Assembly (NCBI GenBank): GCA_017935025.1
Contig: JAGBIL010000020.1
Coordinates: forward strand, 1-64,000
DNA: 64,000 nucleotides
Direction: 5' to 3'
From: Opitutales bacterium
GTDB taxonomy: Bacteria > Verrucomicrobiota > Verrucomicrobiia > Opitutales > UBA953
The position numbers and the translations under genes were made by a program. The notes under the pieces are model-generated. The model did not search any database. It worked only from the letters and a program-made list of their open reading frames with translations, and was not told the origin of the DNA. This document shows positions 18,869 through 28,131 of this stretch, piece by piece (the first letter of the stretch is position 1; every line of letters begins with the position of its first letter).

Positions 18869-20008
18869 TCAATGTTTTGCGTCCTGCAAGCGGTAACGAA
18901 TGTATGCAAACGAATAAATTTTAACGCGGGAACGGACAAACCTGATGCTTTCCCGAATAATACTCCACACAGGAATCCCGTATTTCCGACGGAGCGACGG
19001 CCACATTTTTTTGCAAAAAATATCTTTTGCAAAAGTCTTGCGAACCCAACATTGCGCAAGAAAACATGAGTGCCTTTTTCTATACGCGGGAACGTCAAAT
19101 ACCGACGAATATTTATCAAGCACATCAAGAATATCCAACGCATAAAGTGTCCTTAAACATTTCACGCAAACTCCGCAATTTTTGGTATGCGTGTTACAAA
19201 CATTTAAAAACTCATAACTCGGAGCATAGTTGCTCAAGGTTTTTACTTTTTCAAAGCGAGAAACTTCCGTCCCCGTACTGTAAAACTTTAGATGTTCGGT
19301 GGAGAGGCAGTCTAAAACGAAAATTTCAAAATGAGCCAAATCGGTTCCCGTAAGATGGAACTCCGATACCGCACATCCTGACGAACTGTAGTACGACGAA
19401 AAAAGTTTAGGTAGCGCCATCGCTGCCGCCGCATTTAAAACTGTAAAATAACGAGCATAATTCGGTGAAAAATCGTGAACGTTGGAATTAATTCGCAAAA
19501 ACTCATAGCCGTTTTTCTTGCAAAAGCGTTTAGCTAAATCGACACGAAATTCCTCCATTTCCTTCGGCGCATCCAACCCGATATTATGAGAACCGACATT
19601 AAACAGACAGAGATGCGTCAAATCTTGTGACGGGAACGGCGTTTTTGAATATTCGGCAATCGAATAAAGGCTATCAACTCCACATGTAATTCCGGTACCG
19701 ACGGCACCGGCGTTTTCCAATTTCTCCCGCACGATAGGTGCGGTTATTTTTATTTTTCGTTGGGTATAAACTTCTGCAAGCGTTCCGCAAAGAAACGTAT
19801 TAATCTGAAAAAGCAAACGTTCACTTACGGGAACACGAGAAACAATATCAACTCCGTCCATTGCGGCTTGCGGAAGTAAAGCGAGAACAAAACAATCCGC
19901 TCTATCTACCGCAAAATATTTCGCGTATTCTAAGCCGACTTCAAAAAACAATTCTCCGGCTTTTTCTCCGGAAAGAATTACGGAGATTTTTGCCAATTCC
20001 CCGAACAA
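18869..20008 (-). CDS. N-type ATP pyrophosphatase-like protein, out of frame with its ATG (phase-variable)
   Basis: 379 residues in the open frame from a TTG at 20008. The ATP-pyrophosphatase PP-loop appears as GITCGVDSLYS (SGGxDS type), and a Cys-rich segment (NTHTKNCGVCVKCLRTL) follows, as in QueC-like amide-bond or sugar-modifying enzymes. It may adenylate a carboxylate or carbamoyl group for the glycan made by this operon; the substrate is unknown. The likely true start is the ATG at 20049, 17 nt after the SDR stop, reading MREILIERLLPP. A run of seven C (20013-20019 on this strand) follows and leaves that ATG out of frame; eight C would restore a 393-residue protein. In this copy the gene is therefore probably OFF or poorly expressed. 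It is the last gene of the operon. Confidence 0.75.
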   Translation of the reverse strand: MFGELAKISVILSGEKAGELFFEVGLEYAKYFAVDRADCFVLALLPQAAMDGVDIVSRVPVSERLLFQINTFLCGTLAEVYTQRKIKITAPIVREKLENAGAVGTGITCGVDSLYSIAEYSKTPFPSQDLTHLCLFNVGSHNIGLDAPKEMEEFRVDLAKRFCKKNGYEFLRINSNVHDFSPNYARYFTVLNAAAAMALPKLFSSYYSSSGCAVSEFHLTGTDLAHFEIFVLDCLSTEHLKFYSTGTEVSRFEKVKTLSNYAPSYEFLNVCNTHTKNCGVCVKCLRTLYALDILDVLDKYSSVFDVPAYRKRHSCFLAQCWVRKTFAKDIFCKKMWPSLRRKYGIPVWSIIRESIRFVRSRVKIYSFAYIRYRLQDAKH

Positions 20009-20012
20009 CGAA

Positions 20013-20019
20013 GGGGGGG
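20013..20019 (-). repeat. Poly-C tract (C7) after the start codon of the ATP-pyrophosphatase gene
   Basis: Seven C on the coding strand, about ten codons after the ATG at 20049. With C7 the ATG frame leaves the domain frame; one added C joins them. This is the classical position for an ON/OFF slipped-strand switch. Tract length in the population cannot be judged from one sequence. Confidence 0.75.
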
Positions 20020-20065
20020 TAAAAGACGTTCTATTAGGATTTCTCTCATTTTATTTTCGTAAAAA

Positions 20066-20824
20066 TTAAACTCCGGCCCCGCCGTCAATATTGATGGACG
20101 TTCCCGTCATCCAAGAAGAAGCTTCCGATAGAAGATAAACTGCAAGCGGAGAGATATCCGCAGGAACGCCGTAGCGTCCGAGCGGATAGGTTTTCTCATT
20201 TTCCCTGTAAGTTTCGGTGTCGATTTTCGTGTTATTCAAAATATCGGTCCAAACCATTCCGGGAAGAATACAGTTCACGCGAATTTTTCTGGAGGCGAGT
20301 TCTACGGCAAGCGTCTTCGCATAAGCGATAATTCCCGCCTTGCTTGCGCTGTAAACCGCATTTCCGGGTGTTTGCCGCCACGCCGCAAGCGATGCCGTAA
20401 AAACGACACTCCCGCCGTCGGCGATTTTCTTTTTCTTCAGCAGTGCTTTTTGCAACAGAATCGGCGACTCTAAGTTCGTACGCAAAATATTTTGCATATC
20501 GCCCTCTTTGATAAATTGGCAAGTCATGCGCTTGTTGATTCCCGCATTTTGAACAACACCCTCCAGCTTCGGCAATTGAGCAACAAGCGCATCAATAGAC
20601 TCTGTATTCGCCAAATCTGCGGGAACGACAAGATGAGCTTCCTTATTTTCCGCCAAAGGCATTTGCGAAAGCGTTTCGCAAAGCTGTTCTTCGTTGCGCC
20701 CGGAAAGCACGACACGAGCCCCCATCTTGGCGCATTCAACGGCAATTCCTCGTCCGATTCCGGAAGACGCGCCCGTCACCAAAACGGTTTTTCCGCACAG
20801 GGAAAAAGGATTGTAGTCTTTCAT
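20066..20824 (-). CDS. Short-chain dehydrogenase (FabG-like ketoreductase)
   Basis: 252 residues, classical SDR length. The NAD(P) motif TGASSGIG (18-25), NAG (92-95 region), catalytic Ser145, Tyr158 and Lys162 (YSASK) and the C-terminal SSWMTGTSINIDGG are intact. Such enzymes reduce 3-oxoacyl-ACP; next to an ACP and a ketosynthase III gene, reduction of a short 3-oxoacyl chain before transfer to a sugar is likely. Its ATG follows the stop of the KAS III gene directly (TAAATG) with GGAGG upstream, so the two are translated together. Confidence 0.88.
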   Translation of the reverse strand: MKDYNPFSLCGKTVLVTGASSGIGRGIAVECAKMGARVVLSGRNEEQLCETLSQMPLAENKEAHLVVPADLANTESIDALVAQLPKLEGVVQNAGINKRMTCQFIKEGDMQNILRTNLESPILLQKALLKKKKIADGGSVVFTASLAAWRQTPGNAVYSASKAGIIAYAKTLAVELASRKIRVNCILPGMVWTDILNNTKIDTETYRENEKTYPLGRYGVPADISPLAVYLLSEASSWMTGTSINIDGGAGV

Positions 20825-21883
20825 TTAAACCTCCACGAGTTCACTGATTTTACAATCGACGAAAGGAACGATCCCCGTCGCCCACGTCATTCCCACCCCG
20901 AACGCGCTCAAGAGCAGATTTTTCTTCCCGCCCATGCGTTCCCGTAATTCCGAAACAATCGTCAACGGCACAGATACCGACGATGTGTTCCCGAATTTCT
21001 CCACGCAAGACGGAATTTTTTCGGTGTTTAATTTCAGCTTCTTCGCCAAATAGGTGTTGATGAAGTTGTTTGCCTGATGGAACACATAGAAGTCGAGAGC
21101 GTTTCTATCTGCACCTGCATGGGCAAGCGTTTGTTTGATATCGCGCGGAATTTCCCGAATCACAAAGTTAAAAACGTCGCCGCCATCCATATAACCCTGC
21201 TCGTCGTTGCGGATGTTGCCGTATTCGTCGACAACGCGTTCCCGCAAAGTTTCAGCAGAACTCGGATTGCGATAACCTCCGCCGTTGATTTTGATGAGAT
21301 CTGCGCGGGAGCCATCGGAATTTAACGAAAAATAGCTTTTTCCGAACTTCTCGTCTCGCTCCACCAACGCGGCGACCCCGGCATCGCCGAACAAAAACGC
21401 AGTCCTGCGATCTTTCGGAGAATACACTTTAGAGCGGGTTTCTCCGTCTAAGATAAGTGCCTTCCGCAAACCGCCTTTCTCCATCATGGAATAAACAACG
21501 CTCATGCCGTAAAGGAACGCCGAGCAACCAAGATTAATATCAAACGCGATTGTGCTTTGCGACAGTCCAAGACGTTCTTGCAGGATAACGGAAGTCGCCG
21601 GCATACGAAAATCCGGGGTCTGCGAAATAAAAACCAACAAATCAATTTCCGACCGATCAACTTCATTATCGGCAATCAATTTCTCCGCTGCCGCAAAACA
21701 CAAATCCGACGAACACGTTTTTTCGTCCGCAAAACGCCGTTCGTAAATCCCGACCTTATCTACGACTTCTTTAACCTGATCCGCAGGAAAAAATTCCGTA
21801 TATTCGTAGTTTTTGATGACACGCTTCGGAACAGCCGCCGCCAACGCCGTAATTCCAACGCCTTCAAATATTAAAAATGCCAT
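20825..21883 (-). CDS. 3-oxoacyl-ACP synthase III (FabH-like)
   Basis: 352 residues. The catalytic triad is visible: Cys120 (INLGCSAF), His269 (FHQANNF) and Asn299 (FGNTSSVS). KAS III enzymes start chains by condensing an acyl-CoA with malonyl-ACP. The location in a glycan operon, with its own ACP and SDR, suggests synthesis of a special short acyl group for an amino sugar rather than housekeeping fatty-acid synthesis, as in FabH/ACP pairs of Campylobacter and other O-antigen or flagellin-glycosylation loci. Ends against the SDR start. Confidence 0.9.
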   Translation of the reverse strand: MAFLIFEGVGITALAAAVPKRVIKNYEYTEFFPADQVKEVVDKVGIYERRFADEKTCSSDLCFAAAEKLIADNEVDRSEIDLLVFISQTPDFRMPATSVILQERLGLSQSTIAFDINLGCSAFLYGMSVVYSMMEKGGLRKALILDGETRSKVYSPKDRRTAFLFGDAGVAALVERDEKFGKSYFSLNSDGSRADLIKINGGGYRNPSSAETLRERVVDEYGNIRNDEQGYMDGGDVFNFVIREIPRDIKQTLAHAGADRNALDFYVFHQANNFINTYLAKKLKLNTEKIPSCVEKFGNTSSVSVPLTIVSELRERMGGKKNLLLSAFGVGMTWATGIVPFVDCKISELVEV

Positions 21884-21932
21884 AGATTTAACCGATTAAT
21901 TTTCGGGATTTTTTTTTGTTTTTGTAAAAAAT

Positions 21933-22163
21933 TTACGCCTGCTGACGTTTAATCACGTCAACAATGTCCTGTAGCGTTTCCAGAATCTTGAAGTCCTTTC
22001 CTTCGATTATGACATCGTATTCGTCATCAATCATTGCAATGACGGAAAGGAAAGCGAGCGAGCTCCATTCCGGGTACTCACGGAACTTATCCGTAAGCGC
22101 AATTTCACGATCGTCTATTTCAACTGCGTCTTTGAAGTTTTCGATGAATTTTTGTGTATCCAT
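21933..22163 (-). CDS. Dedicated acyl carrier protein
   Basis: 76 acidic residues with the four-helix ACP pattern. The phosphopantetheine site is WSSLAFLSVIAMIDDEY, where Ser35 takes the place of the Ser of the usual DSL motif; the replacement of Asp by Ser before it marks a specialised rather than a fatty-acid ACP. It carries the acyl intermediate for the FabH-like and SDR proteins that follow. Start at 22163 is the only ATG; gap of about 20 nt to the upstream acetyltransferase gene. Confidence 0.85.
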   Translation of the reverse strand: MDTQKFIENFKDAVEIDDREIALTDKFREYPEWSSLAFLSVIAMIDDEYDVIIEGKDFKILETLQDIVDVIKRQQA

Positions 22164-22184: not shown

Positions 22185-22847
22185 TTATAATTCTGTTTTT
22201 CGGGCAGGATTGCCCGTGTAAAGAAATCCGTCTTTTGTTTTTCGCACGACAAAAGAGCCCGCCCCGATTCGGGTGTTATTTCCGATTTTCACATACTGCA
22301 AAACCGCACTTCTCATCCCGAAAAAGTTTCCGTCCCCGATCTGACAACCTCCGGAAATACGGGTTTCCGGAAACATCGCGTTCCCGTTCCCGATTTGAGA
22401 ATCGTGCCCGACCGAGAGCGAGCCCACAGCGATATTAAAATCGCCCAGCGAAACATTACAGCTAATGCGACTTCCCCAACCGACAACATTTCCGCGCCCC
22501 ACAGAGATAGATACCGGATCAAAAAACACGACATCCGGCGCTATCAAATTGGGAAAATAAATATTCGGATTTTTAATTTTTTCCGGAAGCGACAAAAGCA
22601 CCGCAGGTGTCGCAATCGCAACAACCACGCCAAGTTGCCGCGGGAACGCATTAAGGATGTCAATTCCGCCGAGTACTTCTCCGTAAGCATTACGCGTCCC
22701 GACGGGAACGCCATCGTCGAAAAAACCGATGAGCTTCCATTGCCCTTCCGACGGATTGGCTTCATTGATTTTACGAATCAGACACGCAATTTCGCGCCCG
22801 AAACCGCCCGCGCCGTAAATTGCAATTTCCCGCGTTCCCGTGCTCAT
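22185..22847 (-). CDS. NeuD/PglD-family sugar O- or N-acetyltransferase
   Basis: 220 residues. An N-terminal Rossmann-like domain (EIAIYGAGGFGREIACL) is joined to a left-handed beta-helix of hexapeptide repeats (about 95-200, for example VGRGNVVGWGSRISCNVSLGDF, shortened: VGRGNVVGWG). This is the NeuD/PglD arrangement that transfers an acetyl or other acyl group to a nucleotide- or nonulosonate-sugar. It lacks a convincing Asn-His-Asp set at the usual place but has GHDSQIG, so a catalytic His is possible. Its ATG overlaps the stop of the ATP-grasp gene (ATGA) in the present tract state. Confidence 0.82.
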   Translation of the reverse strand: MSTGTREIAIYGAGGFGREIACLIRKINEANPSEGQWKLIGFFDDGVPVGTRNAYGEVLGGIDILNAFPRQLGVVVAIATPAVLLSLPEKIKNPNIYFPNLIAPDVVFFDPVSISVGRGNVVGWGSRISCNVSLGDFNIAVGSLSVGHDSQIGNGNAMFPETRISGGCQIGDGNFFGMRSAVLQYVKIGNNTRIGAGSFVVRKTKDGFLYTGNPARKTEL

Positions 22848-24013
22848 GCGGCGCTCCTTTCGTTGTGCGCAAAACGTATTGCGTTTGTATTTTTACTGTC
22901 GGACAATCCGCGAAAATCAAAACGAAAAGCATTATCACGGCGAAAACCGCAACGGAACGCCGCCGCAAACGCGACACCGCGCCTCAGTTTACAATTTTCG
23001 GGGGGGGGGATTTCGGTTAAAATGTCACACTTCGCAAAGGCAACATTCGGCTTTGCCGTAAGGAGTTCTGCTCCGACATTTTCTCCTCGGAGCCATTTCA
23101 GAATTGCCAACGGCAAATTCACACCTGCTTCCTGCGAAAACGGATATCCGCCTCCGAACCGGGGATTCAACTCCAAAACGTAATACCGCCCGTCGCGTTC
23201 AAGAACATCGCAGTCCAAATTTGCGACGTGACGAAGCGCTTTTCCGATCTTAAATCCGATTTCGCGAATTTCGGCGTTATCCGCCGTCACCGCCTTGTCC
23301 GTTTCTCCGGCGCGCATCGCCAGTTTACGTTTCACGGAGACGGCGACCGTGTTCCCGTCTAAATCATTCATTACGTCCAAGCCGTATTCGGCATCCGTAA
23401 TCGCCTGTTGGATCAATATCTCTTCTTCCCGGGCAGAAGCGGTCGACAAAATTGATCGCGCAACTTTCCGGCGAACGATTTCGTAGGTTTCGAGAAGCTC
23501 CTCCCTGTCGCGAACAAATTCAATTCCGATAGAACCCGAGCCCCAGCGCGGTTTCAAAATCAACGGAAATACAAGTTCTCCGTTATCGAGAGCGGACAAC
23601 GCGTCCTGTAGCACAACAAAGGTCCTGGGGGTATTCAATCCGAGAGATTCCGCAAAACGGGCAGTCTTCAGCTTGTCGAAACAAATATCAATCACTTCCG
23701 GAGACGAAATGATGAGGCGCGTCCCGATTTTTTCAAAGCGTTCCCGCGCTGCCGCTAAAATAGGAAGTTCCAAATCGTTTAAGGAAATCAGCGCATCAAT
23801 CTTGTTTTTACGGCAAATTTCTTCGACGACACCCGTATAATCTTCGGCATAAACGGCGGGAACGCGCAGCGCAACATCCGCAAATGCAAGCGCAGGGGCG
23901 GTGAGCGACATATCCGTCGCAAAAATCTTTCCGCCGCCTACCGCGTCAAGAGCCGCCCGAAAATATTTCAGCAAATAGGCCCGCCGCCCCGCACAAGAAA
24001 AAAGTAAGTTCAT
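22844..24013 (-). CDS. ATP-grasp ligase with phase-variable C-terminal tail
   Basis: 389 residues. A CarB/PylC-like ATP-grasp fold: N-terminal Rossmann-like part (LLFSCAGRRAYLLKYFRAAL), ATP-binding block (FPLILKPRWGSGSIGIEFVRD) and metal-binding block (LELNPRFGGGYPFSQEAG). It should join a carboxylate to an amine via an acyl phosphate, for example an amino acid onto an amino sugar. The conserved domain ends near ILTEI (about residue 337); a run of ten C (23000-23009) follows, and the remaining 50 basic residues look unlike a folded domain. With C10 the frame reaches the next gene's ATG (ATGA overlap). With C9 or C11 translation stops within four to eight codons of the tract, about 130 nt short of it. 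Confidence 0.82.
   Translation of the reverse strand: MNLLFSCAGRRAYLLKYFRAALDAVGGGKIFATDMSLTAPALAFADVALRVPAVYAEDYTGVVEEICRKNKIDALISLNDLELPILAAARERFEKIGTRLIISSPEVIDICFDKLKTARFAESLGLNTPRTFVVLQDALSALDNGELVFPLILKPRWGSGSIGIEFVRDREELLETYEIVRRKVARSILSTASAREEEILIQQAITDAEYGLDVMNDLDGNTVAVSVKRKLAMRAGETDKAVTADNAEIREIGFKIGKALRHVANLDCDVLERDGRYYVLELNPRFGGGYPFSQEAGVNLPLAILKWLRGENVGAELLTAKPNVAFAKCDILTEIPPPENCKLRRGVAFAAAFRCGFRRDNAFRFDFRGLSDSKNTNAIRFAHNERSAA
23000..23009 (-). repeat. Poly-C tract (C10) at the 3' end of the ATP-grasp gene
   Basis: Ten C on the coding strand, flanked by ATC...GAA codons. The neighbouring frames hit stops almost at once (reading KIVN-stop for C9 and RKL-stop for C11 after the prolines), while C10 stays open to the ATGA junction with the acetyltransferase gene. 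Confidence 0.8.
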
Positions 24014-24031: not shown

Positions 24032-25486
24032 TTAGTTTGTTCCCGCTAAAAAATTCATGACTCCGCCCGTGTGCCAGAAGAGTGCGTTCCCGCGAAAGTC
24101 GCTTTGTTCGAGTTGTTTACTCATCCCGAAAAGAGCTTTTCCGGAATAAGTCGTGTCAAAAACGATTCCCGTTTCCCGAATCGTTTTTTCCAGAAAAATT
24201 TTCATCTCGCCGGAATATTTTTCGTATCCGCCGCAAAGGAAATCCGCACAGAAACGGATTCTCCCGTTAAAAACATCCGGAGAAATACCGTGTTCGACGG
24301 CGAGCTTTTTCGTAAAATCGGAGACCGCCTGCGCCCCGCGCTCTTCCTGTCGGGCAACGGAAATTCCGATGACTTTAACGTCGCCCCACCCTACTTTTTC
24401 CAGCCCGACCAAAATTCCTGCCTGCGTGGAGCCCGTTCCCGAAGCGTGAAAAATCACGTCCGGTTTCCACGCGTTCATTTCGCCGTAGGCGTAAAGCTCG
24501 GCGACGGCATTGACGTAAGCATTCCCGCCGGGAGAGTCATGCCCGCCGCCCGTGACGTAATAAGGTCTTTTCCCGTTGCGGCGGAAGCGTTCCATTGCCG
24601 CATCCATCGCGCCGGATATCTGATCGGCTTCGACAAATTCCGCAGTTGCGCCAAACACCCGGACAAGTGCCGCGTTCCCGCCGCCGGATTCAAAGCGTTC
24701 CCGCGAGCCGTGATAAACGATGTGGCACTCCCAGCCGTTCTTCGCCGCGAGGGCTGCCATCGCACGGTTGTGGTTTGACTGTATCCCGCCTGTCGTAACA
24801 AGAGCATCAATCCCGCAACGGAAGAATTCCCGCTCGTATTCCGCCGCCTTGCGCGCCTTGTTCCCGCCGCCGATTCCGGGGAACAAATCGTCTCGCACGA
24901 TTTTTATGTTTCGTCCGGAAAGTTTCATATCATGACAGAGGAAGAATTCCCGTTGCAGGACTTGGAAATTTTGCCCGACAATGGGGGGGGTAGAATAGAT
25001 CGCGTAGCGCAAACGGTCCTTTATTTTGCCGTTATTTATCACTTCCCGCCGCAAAACGCCTTCTAATGCAAATCCGCACTTTTCGTAAACCTTACGCGCC
25101 GGAGCATTGTCCGCATTTGTGTTGAGATAGACCTTTTCCAAGCCCATTTCGGAAAAAGCGTGAGCGCACATCAGGCTTACGACCCGGGAGCCGATGCCTC
25201 GCCCTTTTAACTCCGGGGAAACAAAAATGTAGAGCTCCGCCTTTTTGACTTCCGAATCAATATCGGTAAACCCGCCCATAGCAACGACTTCGCCCGTTGC
25301 GTCCTCAAACGCAAAATCCGCACGCGCCGGATTTTCACACACTCGCGTAAACCATGCTTGCGTTCCCGCAAGCGTCACCGGAAGCTGAATATTTAGCGTC
25401 GCATTGATGCGAACATCGTTCATCCACGCCACGCGAATCGGCAAGTCGCGCGCTTCCAGCGCCCGAAGAGTAATCTCTCCGCTCAT
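24032..25486 (-). CDS. GNAT acetyltransferase fused to a PLP-dependent ACC deaminase/D-cysteine desulfhydrase-like enzyme
   Basis: 484 residues. Residues 1-165 are a RimJ/RimL-type GNAT (ELYIFVSPELKGRGIGSRVV is the acetyl-CoA loop, shortened: GRGIGSRV), similar in type to PseH that acetylates a UDP-amino sugar. Residues about 185-484 are a fold-type II PLP enzyme with the Lys in GGGNKARK and the phosphate-binding HASGTGSTQAG. The join is a run of eight C (24983-24990). With C7 the GNAT would end in an ATGA overlap with an ATG at 24928 that opens a 298-residue PLP enzyme; with C9 it ends five nt before it. So the two may be made as separate proteins or as a fusion, depending on tract length. 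ATG at 25486 overlaps the stop of the preceding gene and has AAGGAG upstream. Confidence 0.8.
   Translation of the reverse strand: MSGEITLRALEARDLPIRVAWMNDVRINATLNIQLPVTLAGTQAWFTRVCENPARADFAFEDATGEVVAMGGFTDIDSEVKKAELYIFVSPELKGRGIGSRVVSLMCAHAFSEMGLEKVYLNTNADNAPARKVYEKCGFALEGVLRREVINNGKIKDRLRYAIYSTPPIVGQNFQVLQREFFLCHDMKLSGRNIKIVRDDLFPGIGGGNKARKAAEYEREFFRCGIDALVTTGGIQSNHNRAMAALAAKNGWECHIVYHGSRERFESGGGNAALVRVFGATAEFVEADQISGAMDAAMERFRRNGKRPYYVTGGGHDSPGGNAYVNAVAELYAYGEMNAWKPDVIFHASGTGSTQAGILVGLEKVGWGDVKVIGISVARQEERGAQAVSDFTKKLAVEHGISPDVFNGRIRFCADFLCGGYEKYSGEMKIFLEKTIRETGIVFDTTYSGKALFGMSKQLEQSDFRGNALFWHTGGVMNFLAGTN
24983..24990 (-). repeat. Poly-C tract (C8) at the GNAT/PLP-enzyme junction
   Basis: Eight C on the coding strand, between the end of the GNAT domain (RLRYAIYS) and the PLP-enzyme part. 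Length 8 gives a fused product; 7 or 9 gives two adjacent reading frames. See the gene entry for frame details. Confidence 0.8.
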
Positions 25487-26196
25487 GCGGCACTCCTTTC
25501 AAGCCCCGCACGAATTGAGACATTTTGAAACACTAACTCATTCCCGATTCGGGGGGGGGGCTGTTTAAATTTTAGGATTTTCGCGGGAACGCCGGCGACA
25601 ACAGCGTTCGCGGGAACGTCTTTAATCACAACCGCTCCCGCGCCGACCAGGCAGTCTTCTCCGAGATTTTTCACTCCGGTCATAATTGTCGCGCTGATTC
25701 CGACATAGGAAAATTTCTCTGCAACCATTGATGCCCCGAAATTAACGCCCGTAGACAAAAATGTCCCCTCTTTCAACACCGTATGATGTGCGAGGTGAAC
25801 ACCCATGGAAATCATCACATAATCACGGATCTCCGCATACGGCATAATCGTGGTTCCGAGCAAAATATATACACCCTGCCCGACTTTCACGTTCGGGGAA
25901 ATAACGACGGACGGGTGGATGTAGCTCGGAGTCTCGTAACCGAGGGCACGAGCTCTTTCCAGAAATTTGACACGTAATTTGTTGTTGCCGAGCGGACAGT
26001 AAACGGCACAAATCCCGTGCGTTGCGGAAAGTGTTTCAAGCAAATCAATCTTCCCGAGCACGGGAACGCCGCGAACAGACGTTCCTTGCACTCCGTCTGC
26101 GTCATCCAAGAAGCCGACAACATCAACCCCCGCCTCCTGCAAGTACGCGAGATAAACTTCTCCGTAAGTTCCGGCGCCGATAATTACGCTTTTCAT
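25483..26196 (-). CDS. PglD/NeuD-type UDP-amino-sugar acetyltransferase
   Basis: 237 residues. Rossmann-like N-terminus (SVIIGAGTYGEVYLAYL), then a left-handed beta-helix with hexapeptide repeats (SPNVKVGQGVYILLG; HLAHHTVLKEGTFLSTGVNFGA) ending in VVAGVPAKILKF, the usual end of the fold. The His pair in HLAHHT is a candidate for the general base. It follows the aminotransferase and phosphoglycosyl transferase genes as in bacillosamine pathways (PglE-PglC-PglD), so N-acetylation of UDP-4-amino-4,6-dideoxy-GlcNAc is likely. A run of ten C (25551-25560) follows the core; in this state the frame reads on for 23 more residues to an ATGA overlap with the GNAT gene. Confidence 0.85.
   Translation of the reverse strand: MKSVIIGAGTYGEVYLAYLQEAGVDVVGFLDDADGVQGTSVRGVPVLGKIDLLETLSATHGICAVYCPLGNNKLRVKFLERARALGYETPSYIHPSVVISPNVKVGQGVYILLGTTIMPYAEIRDYVMISMGVHLAHHTVLKEGTFLSTGVNFGASMVAEKFSYVGISATIMTGVKNLGEDCLVGAGAVVIKDVPANAVVAGVPAKILKFKQPPPRIGNELVFQNVSIRAGLERSAA
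25551..25560 (-). repeat. Poly-C tract (C10) at the 3' end of the acetyltransferase gene
   Basis: Ten C on the coding strand right after the codons for KFKQ. C9 would read PPPESGMS-stop (stop at 25533-25535) and C11 PPPPNRE-stop (25538-25540), both about 50 nt short of the next start; C10 runs to the ATGA overlap at 25483-25486. Confidence 0.8.
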
Positions 26197-26199
26197 CCC

Positions 26200-26817
26200 C
26201 TAATTACTCCCGTTAAACGGCTCTATGCCGATTTCCTTCGTTCCGCTGTTAATGTCGGCACGTTTCAAAACTTTGAGCGCCGTCAAAAACAGAATTTTTA
26301 CGTCCAACCAAAACGAAACGTTATCAACGTACCAAACGTCCAACTCGAATTTTCGAGTCCATGAAATCGCGTTTCGCCCGTTAACCTGCGCCCAACCGGT
26401 TACGCCCGGCAAAACATCGTGGCGGCGAGCCTGCTCCGGAGAATAAAGCGGGAGATAACAAACATGCAACGGACGCGGACCGACAATCGAAATATCGCCG
26501 CGCAAAATGTTGATAAGTTGAGGAAGCTCGTCCAGGGATGTGGAACGGATAAATTTCCCGACTTTGGTGATTCTTTGCTCGTTCGGCAACAGGTTCCCGT
26601 CAGCGTCACGCTCGTCCGTCATGGACTTAAACTTGACAACTTTGAAAACCTTCCCGTTCTTACCCGGTCGGTCCTGTGTGAAAAAAATTCCCGCTCCTTT
26701 ATTCGCGAAATGCAACCAAACGCAAAGCGTCAGAATCAACGGCGACGCAACAACCAGTACGCACGACGCGAGGGCAACATCAAGCACACGCTTGAAACAA
26801 TCGCGATAAAGTTTCAT
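26200..26817 (-). CDS. Phosphoglycosyl transferase (PglC-type sugar transferase)
   Basis: 205 residues, the size of a minimal monotopic phosphoglycosyl transferase. A re-entrant N-terminal helix (about 10-37, LDVALASCVLVVASPLIL) is followed by the catalytic Asp96-Glu97 pair (SLDELPQL), RPGKNGKVFKVVKFKSM and GDISIVGPRPL. These enzymes transfer a sugar 1-phosphate from UDP to undecaprenyl phosphate at the inner membrane, the first committed step of glycan assembly. Between PglE- and PglD-like genes the likely substrate is UDP-N,N'-diacetylbacillosamine or a relative. Starts 6 nt after the aminotransferase stop. Confidence 0.9.
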   Translation of the reverse strand: MKLYRDCFKRVLDVALASCVLVVASPLILTLCVWLHFANKGAGIFFTQDRPGKNGKVFKVVKFKSMTDERDADGNLLPNEQRITKVGKFIRSTSLDELPQLINILRGDISIVGPRPLHVCYLPLYSPEQARRHDVLPGVTGWAQVNGRNAISWTRKFELDVWYVDNVSFWLDVKILFLTALKVLKRADINSGTKEIGIEPFNGSN

Positions 26818-26823
26818 TTGTAT

Positions 26824-27951
26824 TTAAAATTTGATGACCTCGACGACCCGGAAAATGTCTTCATCCGTGAGCGATGAGCCGGACGGCAGGCAAAGCCCCT
26901 GAGAAAAGATTTTTTCCGATGTCCCGTTCCCGTAGAACGGGGCATCAGCGTAAACGGGCTGCATATGCATCGGCTTCCAAAGCGGACGCGTTTCAATGTT
27001 CGCAGCCTCGAATTTCCGGCGAAGCGCCTCGTAATCCATTCCGAATTTTTCCGGTTCGACAAGGATGCAGGTCAACCAGAAACTCGAATCAAAGTCCGCT
27101 CCCGGAGACTGTTTTACCGTGATGCCCGGCGTTCCCGCAAGGAGCTTCGTGTAGAGCGCGTGAATTTCGCGACGGCGCGCGACGTGCGCATCGAGCACCT
27201 CCATCTGTCCGCGCCCGATTCCCGCACAAATATTGCTCATGCGGTAGTTGTAACCGATTTTTTCGTGCTGGTAGTACGGACGGTTTTCGCGTGCCTGTGT
27301 GGCATAAAACTTCGTGCGAGCCGCCTCTTCCTCCGTACGGCAAATGAGCGCGCCGCCACCGGATGTCGTGATGATTTTGTTCCCGTTAAAAGAAAGTGCG
27401 GCAAATTCGCCGAAAGTTCCGCACTTACGCCCTTTGTACTCTGCGCCAAGCGCCTCAGCGGCATCTTCAAGCACGGGAATGCCGTATTTCTCTGCGACGG
27501 CACAAATTTCGTCCATTTTCGCCGGCATACCGTAAAGGTGGACGGGAACAATCGCCTTCGGGTATTTTCCGGTTTTTTCTTTGCGATCAAGAATCGCTTC
27601 TTCGAGTAAAACCGGATCCATGTTCCACGTCTCCTCCTCCGAATCGACGAACACGGGAACGCCTCCGCAGTAAACGACAGGATTCGCGCTCGCGGCAAAC
27701 GTAAAACTTTGGCAAATGACTTCGTCGCCCGCGCCCACACCGAGCTGAATCAACCCGAGATGAAGCGCCGCCGTTCCCGCGCTGAGCGCGACCGCATGAC
27801 AATCCTTCCCTAAATACGCGGAAAGCGTCGCCTCAAACGCGTTAACGTTCGGCCCCAGCGGCACGACCCAATTCGTATCAAAGGCCTCTTTGATAAAGTC
27901 CTGTTCATGCCCGCCCATATGAGCTAACGAAAGCCAAATTTTCTTATCCAT
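26824..27951 (-). CDS. DegT/DnrJ/EryC1 sugar aminotransferase (PglE-like)
   Basis: 375 residues from the ATG at 27951 (a second ATG at 27966 is possible). PLP-dependent aminotransferase: SAGTAALHLGLIQLG, EDAAEALGAEYKG and the Schiff-base Lys192 in SFNGNKIITTSGGG. The start KKIWLSLAHMGGHEQDFI and NWVVPLGPNVNAFE are characteristic of the PglE group that converts UDP-4-keto-6-deoxy-GlcNAc to the 4-amino sugar. No 4,6-dehydratase (PglF) is in the window. It is the first gene of the ten-gene operon; about 165 nt upstream of it separate it from nadC, which runs the other way. Confidence 0.9.
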   Translation of the reverse strand: MDKKIWLSLAHMGGHEQDFIKEAFDTNWVVPLGPNVNAFEATLSAYLGKDCHAVALSAGTAALHLGLIQLGVGAGDEVICQSFTFAASANPVVYCGGVPVFVDSEEETWNMDPVLLEEAILDRKEKTGKYPKAIVPVHLYGMPAKMDEICAVAEKYGIPVLEDAAEALGAEYKGRKCGTFGEFAALSFNGNKIITTSGGGALICRTEEEAARTKFYATQARENRPYYQHEKIGYNYRMSNICAGIGRGQMEVLDAHVARRREIHALYTKLLAGTPGITVKQSPGADFDSSFWLTCILVEPEKFGMDYEALRRKFEAANIETRPLWKPMHMQPVYADAPFYGNGTSEKIFSQGLCLPSGSSLTDEDIFRVVEVIKF

Positions 27952-28131
27952 CTGTGTTCCGACCATTATAAACGATTTCTCACAGGATTACAAATATTTG
28001 CCGGAGATTTTCTTGTTCGGCATACCAAGACAGGGGATCTCCGGCTACGCGCTCACAAGCCGAGAGAAGAATCCCGGTCTCAAAACTTTTTCACCTTGCG
28101 ACGAAAGGAAGGAAAGAGTTTCTTTTGATAC

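What the first reader, a model, noticed from the sequence alone, without database searches (positions are those of the whole stretch)
20008..20049. Terminal gene of the operon is out of frame with its ATG in this copy
ATG at 20049 reads about ten codons into C7 and then leaves the domain frame; C8 would give a continuous 393-residue protein. The only start in the present frame is a TTG at 20008 without a visible ribosome-binding site. This is a textbook OFF state of a contingency gene.
Basis: seen in the sequence. Interest (0 to 1): 0.72.

Follow-up and report, generated by a model that had tools for sequence, protein, structure and literature searches.

The report
Poly-C switch, apparently OFF, glycan gene
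In this gut bacterium the last gene of a surface-sugar operon has a run of seven Cs just after its start codon that leaves the gene out of frame. It sits among longer C-runs that differ in length between sister species, so it is most likely a slippage-type on/off switch caught in the off position: a known trick, not previously reported as far as I found in this bacterial order.

Summary
On the minus strand, ATG 20049 is followed by ten codons and C7 (20013-20019). It then runs into a stop after 23 codons, while the conserved domain lies in another frame whose only start is TTG 20008. One more C gives 393 residues.

The 'contingency gene' reading is well supported by context but not proven for this tract. 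The same operon carries C10, C8 and C10 on the coding strand. Orthologous tracts in two sister species have other lengths (C11/C10, C14/C14+C15, C14/C12) and other reading states. The 2.03 Mb genome has 28 C-runs of 8-15, against about one expected, in glycosyltransferase, acyltransferase, HsdS and type IIG genes. An acyltransferase there has the same layout with C13.

Caveats: C7 runs (9 per genome) are at background frequency. The N-terminal peptide shows no significant profile homology. The gene has no ortholog in the genus. No reads or isolates were available. The missing ribosome-binding site is not diagnostic, because the ATG and four other operon genes lack one too.

Best reading: a weakly mutable poly-C translational switch, OFF in the sampled majority, in a gene for an uncharacterised PP-loop-like protein. 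It is a new member of a known kind; Akkermansia has comparable poly-G/C genes.

The parts
20013..20019 (-). C7 tract at codons 11-13 of the ATG frame; proposed switch
20047..20049 (-). ATG start, about 15 nt after the stop of the SDR gene; MREILIERLL precedes the tract; AT-rich leader without Shine-Dalgarno
20006..20008 (-). TTG, only common start in the present domain frame; C-rich leader, no Shine-Dalgarno
18869..20008 (-). Domain frame of the terminal gene, 379 codons, intact; PP-loop-like TCGVDSL and NCGVCVKC motifs; no Pfam/NCBIfam/PHROG/PADLOC match
20066..20824 (-). SDR-family oxidoreductase, gene immediately upstream
20825..21883 (-). Beta-ketoacyl-ACP synthase III-like
21932..22163 (-). 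Acyl carrier protein-like
22185..22847 (-). NeuD/PglD-type sugar acetyltransferase
22844..24013 (-). PylC/CPSase-like ATP-grasp protein
23000..23009 (-). C10 near the 3' end of the ATP-grasp gene; C14 and C12 at the same place in sister species
24032..25486 (-). GNAT domain joined in frame to a PLP-dependent (ACC deaminase/D-cysteate lyase-like) domain
24983..24990 (-). C8 at the GNAT/PLP junction; C14 in G005; C14 plus C15 around a scaffold gap in G003
25483..26196 (-). NeuD/PglD-type sugar acetyltransferase
25551..25560 (-). C10 near the 3' end of that gene; C11 in G005, C10 in G003
26200..26817 (-). Bacterial sugar transferase (initiating phosphoglycosyl transferase type)
26824..27966 (-). 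DegT/LegC-type aminotransferase, first gene of the operon

Best explanation
The C7 is the short allele of a poly-C slippage tract that switches translation of the operon's last gene. Translation from ATG 20049 (inferred start) makes the full 393-residue protein when the tract is C8 (or another length in the same register), and stops early when it is C7 or C9. In the sequenced population the majority allele is C7, so the gene is OFF (frame state shown; expression inferred). The protein is an uncharacterised PP-loop-like ATP pyrophosphatase relative, probably tailoring a surface glycan made by the operon (inferred from neighbours). Together with the C10, C8 and C10 tracts upstream it would give combinatorial surface variants. 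At seven bases the reversal rate is probably low, so this may be a slow or nearly locked OFF state.
For: Frames as described. Coding-strand C-runs in the operon: 4 of >=7 against 0.055 expected; none elsewhere in the window. Orthologous operons in two sister species (G005 = Opitutales MAG RGIG2967, goat rectum; G003 = Verrucomicrobia MAG SIG76) keep the three other tracts in place with different lengths and different reading outcomes. Genome-wide C-run spectrum is 72 C6, 9 C7, then 28 of C8-C15. Examined ones lie in or beside GT2, acyltransferase-3, hexapeptide transferase, GDSL lipase, HsdS and MmeI-type genes. The acyltransferase-3 gene has ATG, 11 codons, C13, then the domain out of frame, the same layout. 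The dinucleotide TA directly precedes 12 of the 28 long runs but about 2.5% of C3-C4 runs; the target is the only C7 of nine preceded by TA. The shortest homologs have about 31-33 residues before the conserved F block; the ATG form has 35, the TTG form 21. The rest of the ORF and its motifs are intact.
Against: C7 as a class is at background frequency. Literature places demonstrated switching at 8 or more G/C, with 7 as a permissive cut-off and rates possibly below 1e-5 (PMC6321876). The N-terminal peptide scores no better than shuffled peptides against the family profile. The gene has no ortholog in the eight genomes of the genus, so its own tract cannot be compared. No reads or second isolate were available. 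The TA context was noticed after the fact.
Confidence: 0.7

Rival explanations
1. The gene is constitutively expressed from TTG 20008; C7 lies in a 5' untranslated stretch and means nothing.
For: The domain frame is open and intact from TTG; all motifs are present; the profile match begins only at residue 3 of the TTG form, so the domain is nearly complete without the upstream peptide.
Against: The TTG product would be 10 or more residues shorter at its N-terminus than every homolog compared and lack the first predicted strand. A C-rich leader, no Shine-Dalgarno and a rarer start codon. It does not explain the C-run clustering.
Confidence: 0.13
2. Fixed loss: the tract shrank to a poorly mutable C7 and the gene is a young pseudogene.
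For: C7 is short relative to its neighbours; C7 counts are at background level; the 3' module is not conserved in the genus.
Against: No other lesion in 379 codons. A single slippage restores frame, so OFF and dead cannot be told apart from one sequence.
Confidence: 0.1
3. The C7 state still yields full-length protein through ribosomal -1 frameshifting or transcriptional slippage on the C-run.
For: Homopolymers can promote slippage (general knowledge); the required shift is -1.
Against: No perfect tandem slippery heptamer in the ATG frame (TTA CCC CCC CTT; sequence); C-runs are poorer slippage sites for RNA polymerase than A/T-runs (general knowledge); nothing tested.
Confidence: 0.04
4. Sequencing or assembly error in the homopolymer of a draft genome.
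For: Draft of 46 contigs, probably a MAG like its sisters; a C9 run lies exactly at a contig end, so C-runs do trouble this assembly.
Against: Seven bases is normally read correctly by short reads (general knowledge); longer tracts in the same operon were assembled.
Confidence: 0.03

Closest known systems
Akkermansia muciniphila Amuc_1413 (G8/G9/G10 tract, exopolysaccharide gene) and Amuc_2098 (C10 at the end of a cps1 acyltransferase gene); PMC3048395, PMC13055324, PMC13343947
   Same: Same phylum; G/C homopolymer in surface-polysaccharide genes; one-base change truncates the protein and is seen across genomes and cultures. The C10 at the end of an acyltransferase resembles the C10 at the end of NeuD here.
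   Different: Switching was observed there (G9 to G10, mucin binding lost). Here it is only inferred, the tract is C7, and the gene family is different. Relatedness of the two acyltransferases was not tested.
Campylobacter jejuni poly-G/C phasome (PMC6321876, PMC4965091)
   Same: Tens of poly-G/C tracts of seven or more in surface-modification genes; 5'-proximal tracts act as translational ON/OFF switches.
   Different: Phylum, gene content; there the switching is measured.
Helicobacter canadensis C-terminal phase variation (PMC2823697)
   Same: Homopolymers near the 3' end change the C-terminus rather than abolish the protein, like the C10 tracts of NeuD and ATP-grasp here.
   Different: The target tract here is 5'-proximal, the ordinary ON/OFF kind.
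QueC-like PP-loop proteins (Pfam PF06508)
   Same: SGGVDS-type motif and a four-cysteine C-terminal motif by eye; a distant homolog hits QueC weakly (E 0.015).
   Different: The target itself has no hit in Pfam, NCBIfam, PHROGs, PADLOC, and the family profile has none in PDB.

Membership tests
Poly-G/C translational phase-variable (contingency) gene | Homopolymer of G/C, seven or more, inside the 5' part of the reading frame | tested here: met
   C7 at codons 11-13 after ATG 20049; at the minimum cut-off
Poly-G/C translational phase-variable (contingency) gene | Tract length decides between full-length and truncated product | tested here: met
   C7: 23-codon product; C8: 393 residues
Poly-G/C translational phase-variable (contingency) gene | Tract length varies within a population or between isolates | not testable with these tools
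   One genome per species, no reads; no ortholog in the genus. Neighbouring tracts do vary between sister species
Poly-G/C translational phase-variable (contingency) gene | Expression and phenotype switch reversibly | not testable with these tools
   Needs experiment
Poly-G/C translational phase-variable (contingency) gene | Long G/C runs over-represented in the genome and found in surface or restriction genes | tested here: met
   28 runs of C8-C15 against 9 C7 and 72 C6; GT2, acyltransferases, HsdS, MmeI type among those examined
Protein family with ATG 20049 as start | N-terminal peptide homologous to the family N-terminus | tested here: inconclusive
   Position and length fit, but profile score 322.3 against shuffle mean 322.4
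QueC (PF06508) | Significant match to the family profile | tested here: not met
   No hit for the target even at E 5

The most novel reading that the evidence does not exclude
The whole operon is a multi-tract combinatorial glycan switch: 3'-end C-tracts swap C-termini and uncouple or fuse downstream genes (acetyltransferase, GNAT-PLP fusion, ATP-grasp), while the 5' C7 gates the last enzyme. This design, with a recurrent TA-Cn context, would be a lineage-wide phasome of Opitutales gut bacteria.
Probability: 0.3. Interest if true: 0.55.

Novelty: new member of a known kind. Interest (0 to 1): 0.36.

Why it matters
It extends slippage-type phase variation of surface-glycan genes to an uncultured gut lineage (Opitutales), where my search found no report. 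It also warns that genes such as this one can be mis-annotated with a spurious TTG start or lost in MAG annotation. The sister-species comparison gives a concrete list of tracts whose alleles could be counted directly in existing metagenome reads.

Tried and rejected
Profile test of the N-terminal peptide against eight homologs, with shuffled and random peptides as controls: inconclusive. Structure prediction of the 379-residue form: pLDDT 39, unusable. PDB profile search: nothing. Search of named genomes for close relatives of the target: none. Search of the genus and a class sample for an ortholog with the tract: only paralogs at 36% or less. KASIII homologs across the order: several retrieved loci keep an SDR next to KASIII but none carries the PP-loop gene. 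The missing ribosome-binding site was rejected as an argument because the ATG lacks one too.

Full report
WHAT WAS CHECKED. The finding concerns the minus strand at 20008-20049. ATG 20049 is followed by MREILIERLL, then C7 (20013-20019). In the ATG frame translation continues PPLRCSGNWQKSP and stops. The domain frame (SLFGELAKISVILSGEK...) is open to 18869, with TTG 20008 as its only common start. One extra C joins the two into 393 residues. The description is accurate.

SURROUNDINGS. The gene is the last of a minus-strand operon starting at 27966. The order is DegT/LegC aminotransferase, bacterial sugar transferase, NeuD/PglD acetyltransferase, a GNAT domain joined to a PLP-dependent enzyme, a PylC/CPSase-like ATP-grasp protein, a second NeuD, an acyl carrier protein, KASIII, SDR and the target. 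This looks like a pathway for a modified, lipid-linked surface sugar (inference from families). The target has no match in Pfam, NCBIfam, PHROGs or PADLOC. Its family carries a PP-loop-like G-V-D-S motif and a C-NC-x2-C-x-KC motif. Homologs occur in the same genome (36%), in a sister species (36%) and in other genomes of the class.

IS THE RUN MORE THAN CHANCE? Genome-wide there are 72 exact C6 runs, 9 exact C7 runs, and 28 runs of C8 to C15 (lengths tabulated). A geometric decline from C6 to C7 predicts about one run of 8 or more. So long C-runs are a separate, selected or hypermutable class, whereas C7 runs as a class are at background level. The target's tract therefore cannot be assigned to the long-run class by length alone. 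Three other facts favour assigning it. First, four coding-strand C-runs lie in 9.1 kb of one operon, where dinucleotide shuffles give 0.055 of C>=7 and never four in 1000; the other ~55 kb of the window have none. Second, TA directly precedes 12 of the 28 long runs against about 2.5% of C3-C4 runs, and the target is the only one of nine C7 runs with TA (noticed after the fact). Third, it lies where a translational switch should lie, ten codons after an ATG, and the gene is out of frame there.

COMPARISON WITH SISTER SPECIES. Two genomes of the same genus carry the first part of the operon at 82-91% identity for most genes (about 52% for the PLP domain). At the same positions the tracts are C10/C11/C10 (first NeuD), C8/C14/C14 plus C15 (GNAT-PLP junction, interrupted by a scaffold gap in G003) and C10/C14/C12 (ATP-grasp), for window/G005/G003. 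The reading outcome differs. NeuD runs to a stop overlapping the next start in the window and G003 but stops at once in G005. GNAT is fused in frame to the PLP domain in the window but not in G005. ATP-grasp reads into a long tail in the window and G005 but stops at once in G003. Conserved position with varying length and register is what slippage loci show between lineages. The 3' module that includes the target was not found in either sister operon, so the target's own tract has no comparator.

THE GENOME'S OTHER TRACTS. Long C-runs lie in or next to a GT2 gene (3' end), an acyltransferase-3 gene (5' end), a hexapeptide transferase (5' end), a GDSL lipase (5' end, in frame), HsdS (C11, its two recognition domains in different frames), an MmeI-type restriction-methylase (C15, in frame) and a nitroreductase-family gene (3' end). 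The acyltransferase-3 gene has ATG, eleven codons, C13, then the domain out of frame: the same arrangement as the target. This functional spectrum resembles known phasomes (Campylobacter, PMC6321876; Helicobacter canadensis, PMC2823697). Not every long run was assigned to a gene, and some appear intergenic.

WHICH START IS REAL? The shortest homologs have about 31-33 residues before the conserved F block. The ATG-C8 form has 35 and the TTG form 21. ATG 20049 lies about 15 nt after the upstream stop in an AT-rich leader like those of other operon genes without Shine-Dalgarno. These favour the ATG. A direct profile test of the N-terminal peptide did not (322.3 bits against a shuffle mean of 322.4), so homology of that peptide is not shown.

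MECHANISM AND CONFIDENCE. Shown: the tract, the frames, the sister-species variation of the neighbouring tracts and the genome-wide excess. Inferred: initiation at ATG 20049, OFF expression in the majority allele, replication slippage at this tract and the gene's glycan role. I give 0.70 to a poly-C switch in the OFF state, with a low reversal rate expected at seven bases. The literature has switching demonstrated at eight or more and notes that tracts near the cut-off may mutate below 1e-5 (PMC6321876). In Akkermansia a G9 to G10 change in Amuc_1413 has been observed and costs mucin binding (PMC13055324), and a C10 lies at the end of the cps1 acyltransferase gene Amuc_2098 (PMC3048395, PMC13343947).

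VERDICT. Observation confirmed; interpretation partly supported; a new member of a known kind. The more interesting result is the operon- and genome-wide set of C-tracts, of which this is the weakest single example.

Noticed in passing
window 25551-25560 and 23000-23009: Both C10 tracts lie near the 3' end of a gene, and in the present register each gene ends in 'ERSAA' with its stop overlapping the next ATG after AAAGGAG. Other registers stop early, so tract length could change both the C-terminus and translational coupling.
   Followed up: partly
window 24983-24990: C8 joins a GNAT domain and a PLP-dependent enzyme into one 484-residue frame; in sister species G005 the two are in different frames.
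   Followed up: partly
L097 (G000:C19:21942-21952): C11 between the two recognition domains of an HsdS gene, which are in different frames: a likely phase-variable type I restriction specificity subunit.
   Followed up: partly
L017 (G000:C14:37879-37893): C15, in frame, inside an MmeI-type restriction-methylase gene.
   Followed up: partly
L100 (G000:C31:9645-9657): Acyltransferase-3 gene with ATG, 11 codons, C13, then the domain out of frame: same layout as the target.
   Followed up: yes
28 C-runs of G000: The dinucleotide TA precedes 12 of 28 long C-runs, far above background; unexplained.
   Followed up: partly
L065 6238-6395 (G003:C14): C14-G8, ten Ns, about 110 bases, then C15 at the GNAT/PLP junction: an insertion or scaffold artefact exactly at the tract.
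   Followed up: no
G000:C28:55107-55115: Contig ends exactly in a C9 run; long C-runs seem to break this assembly.
   Followed up: no
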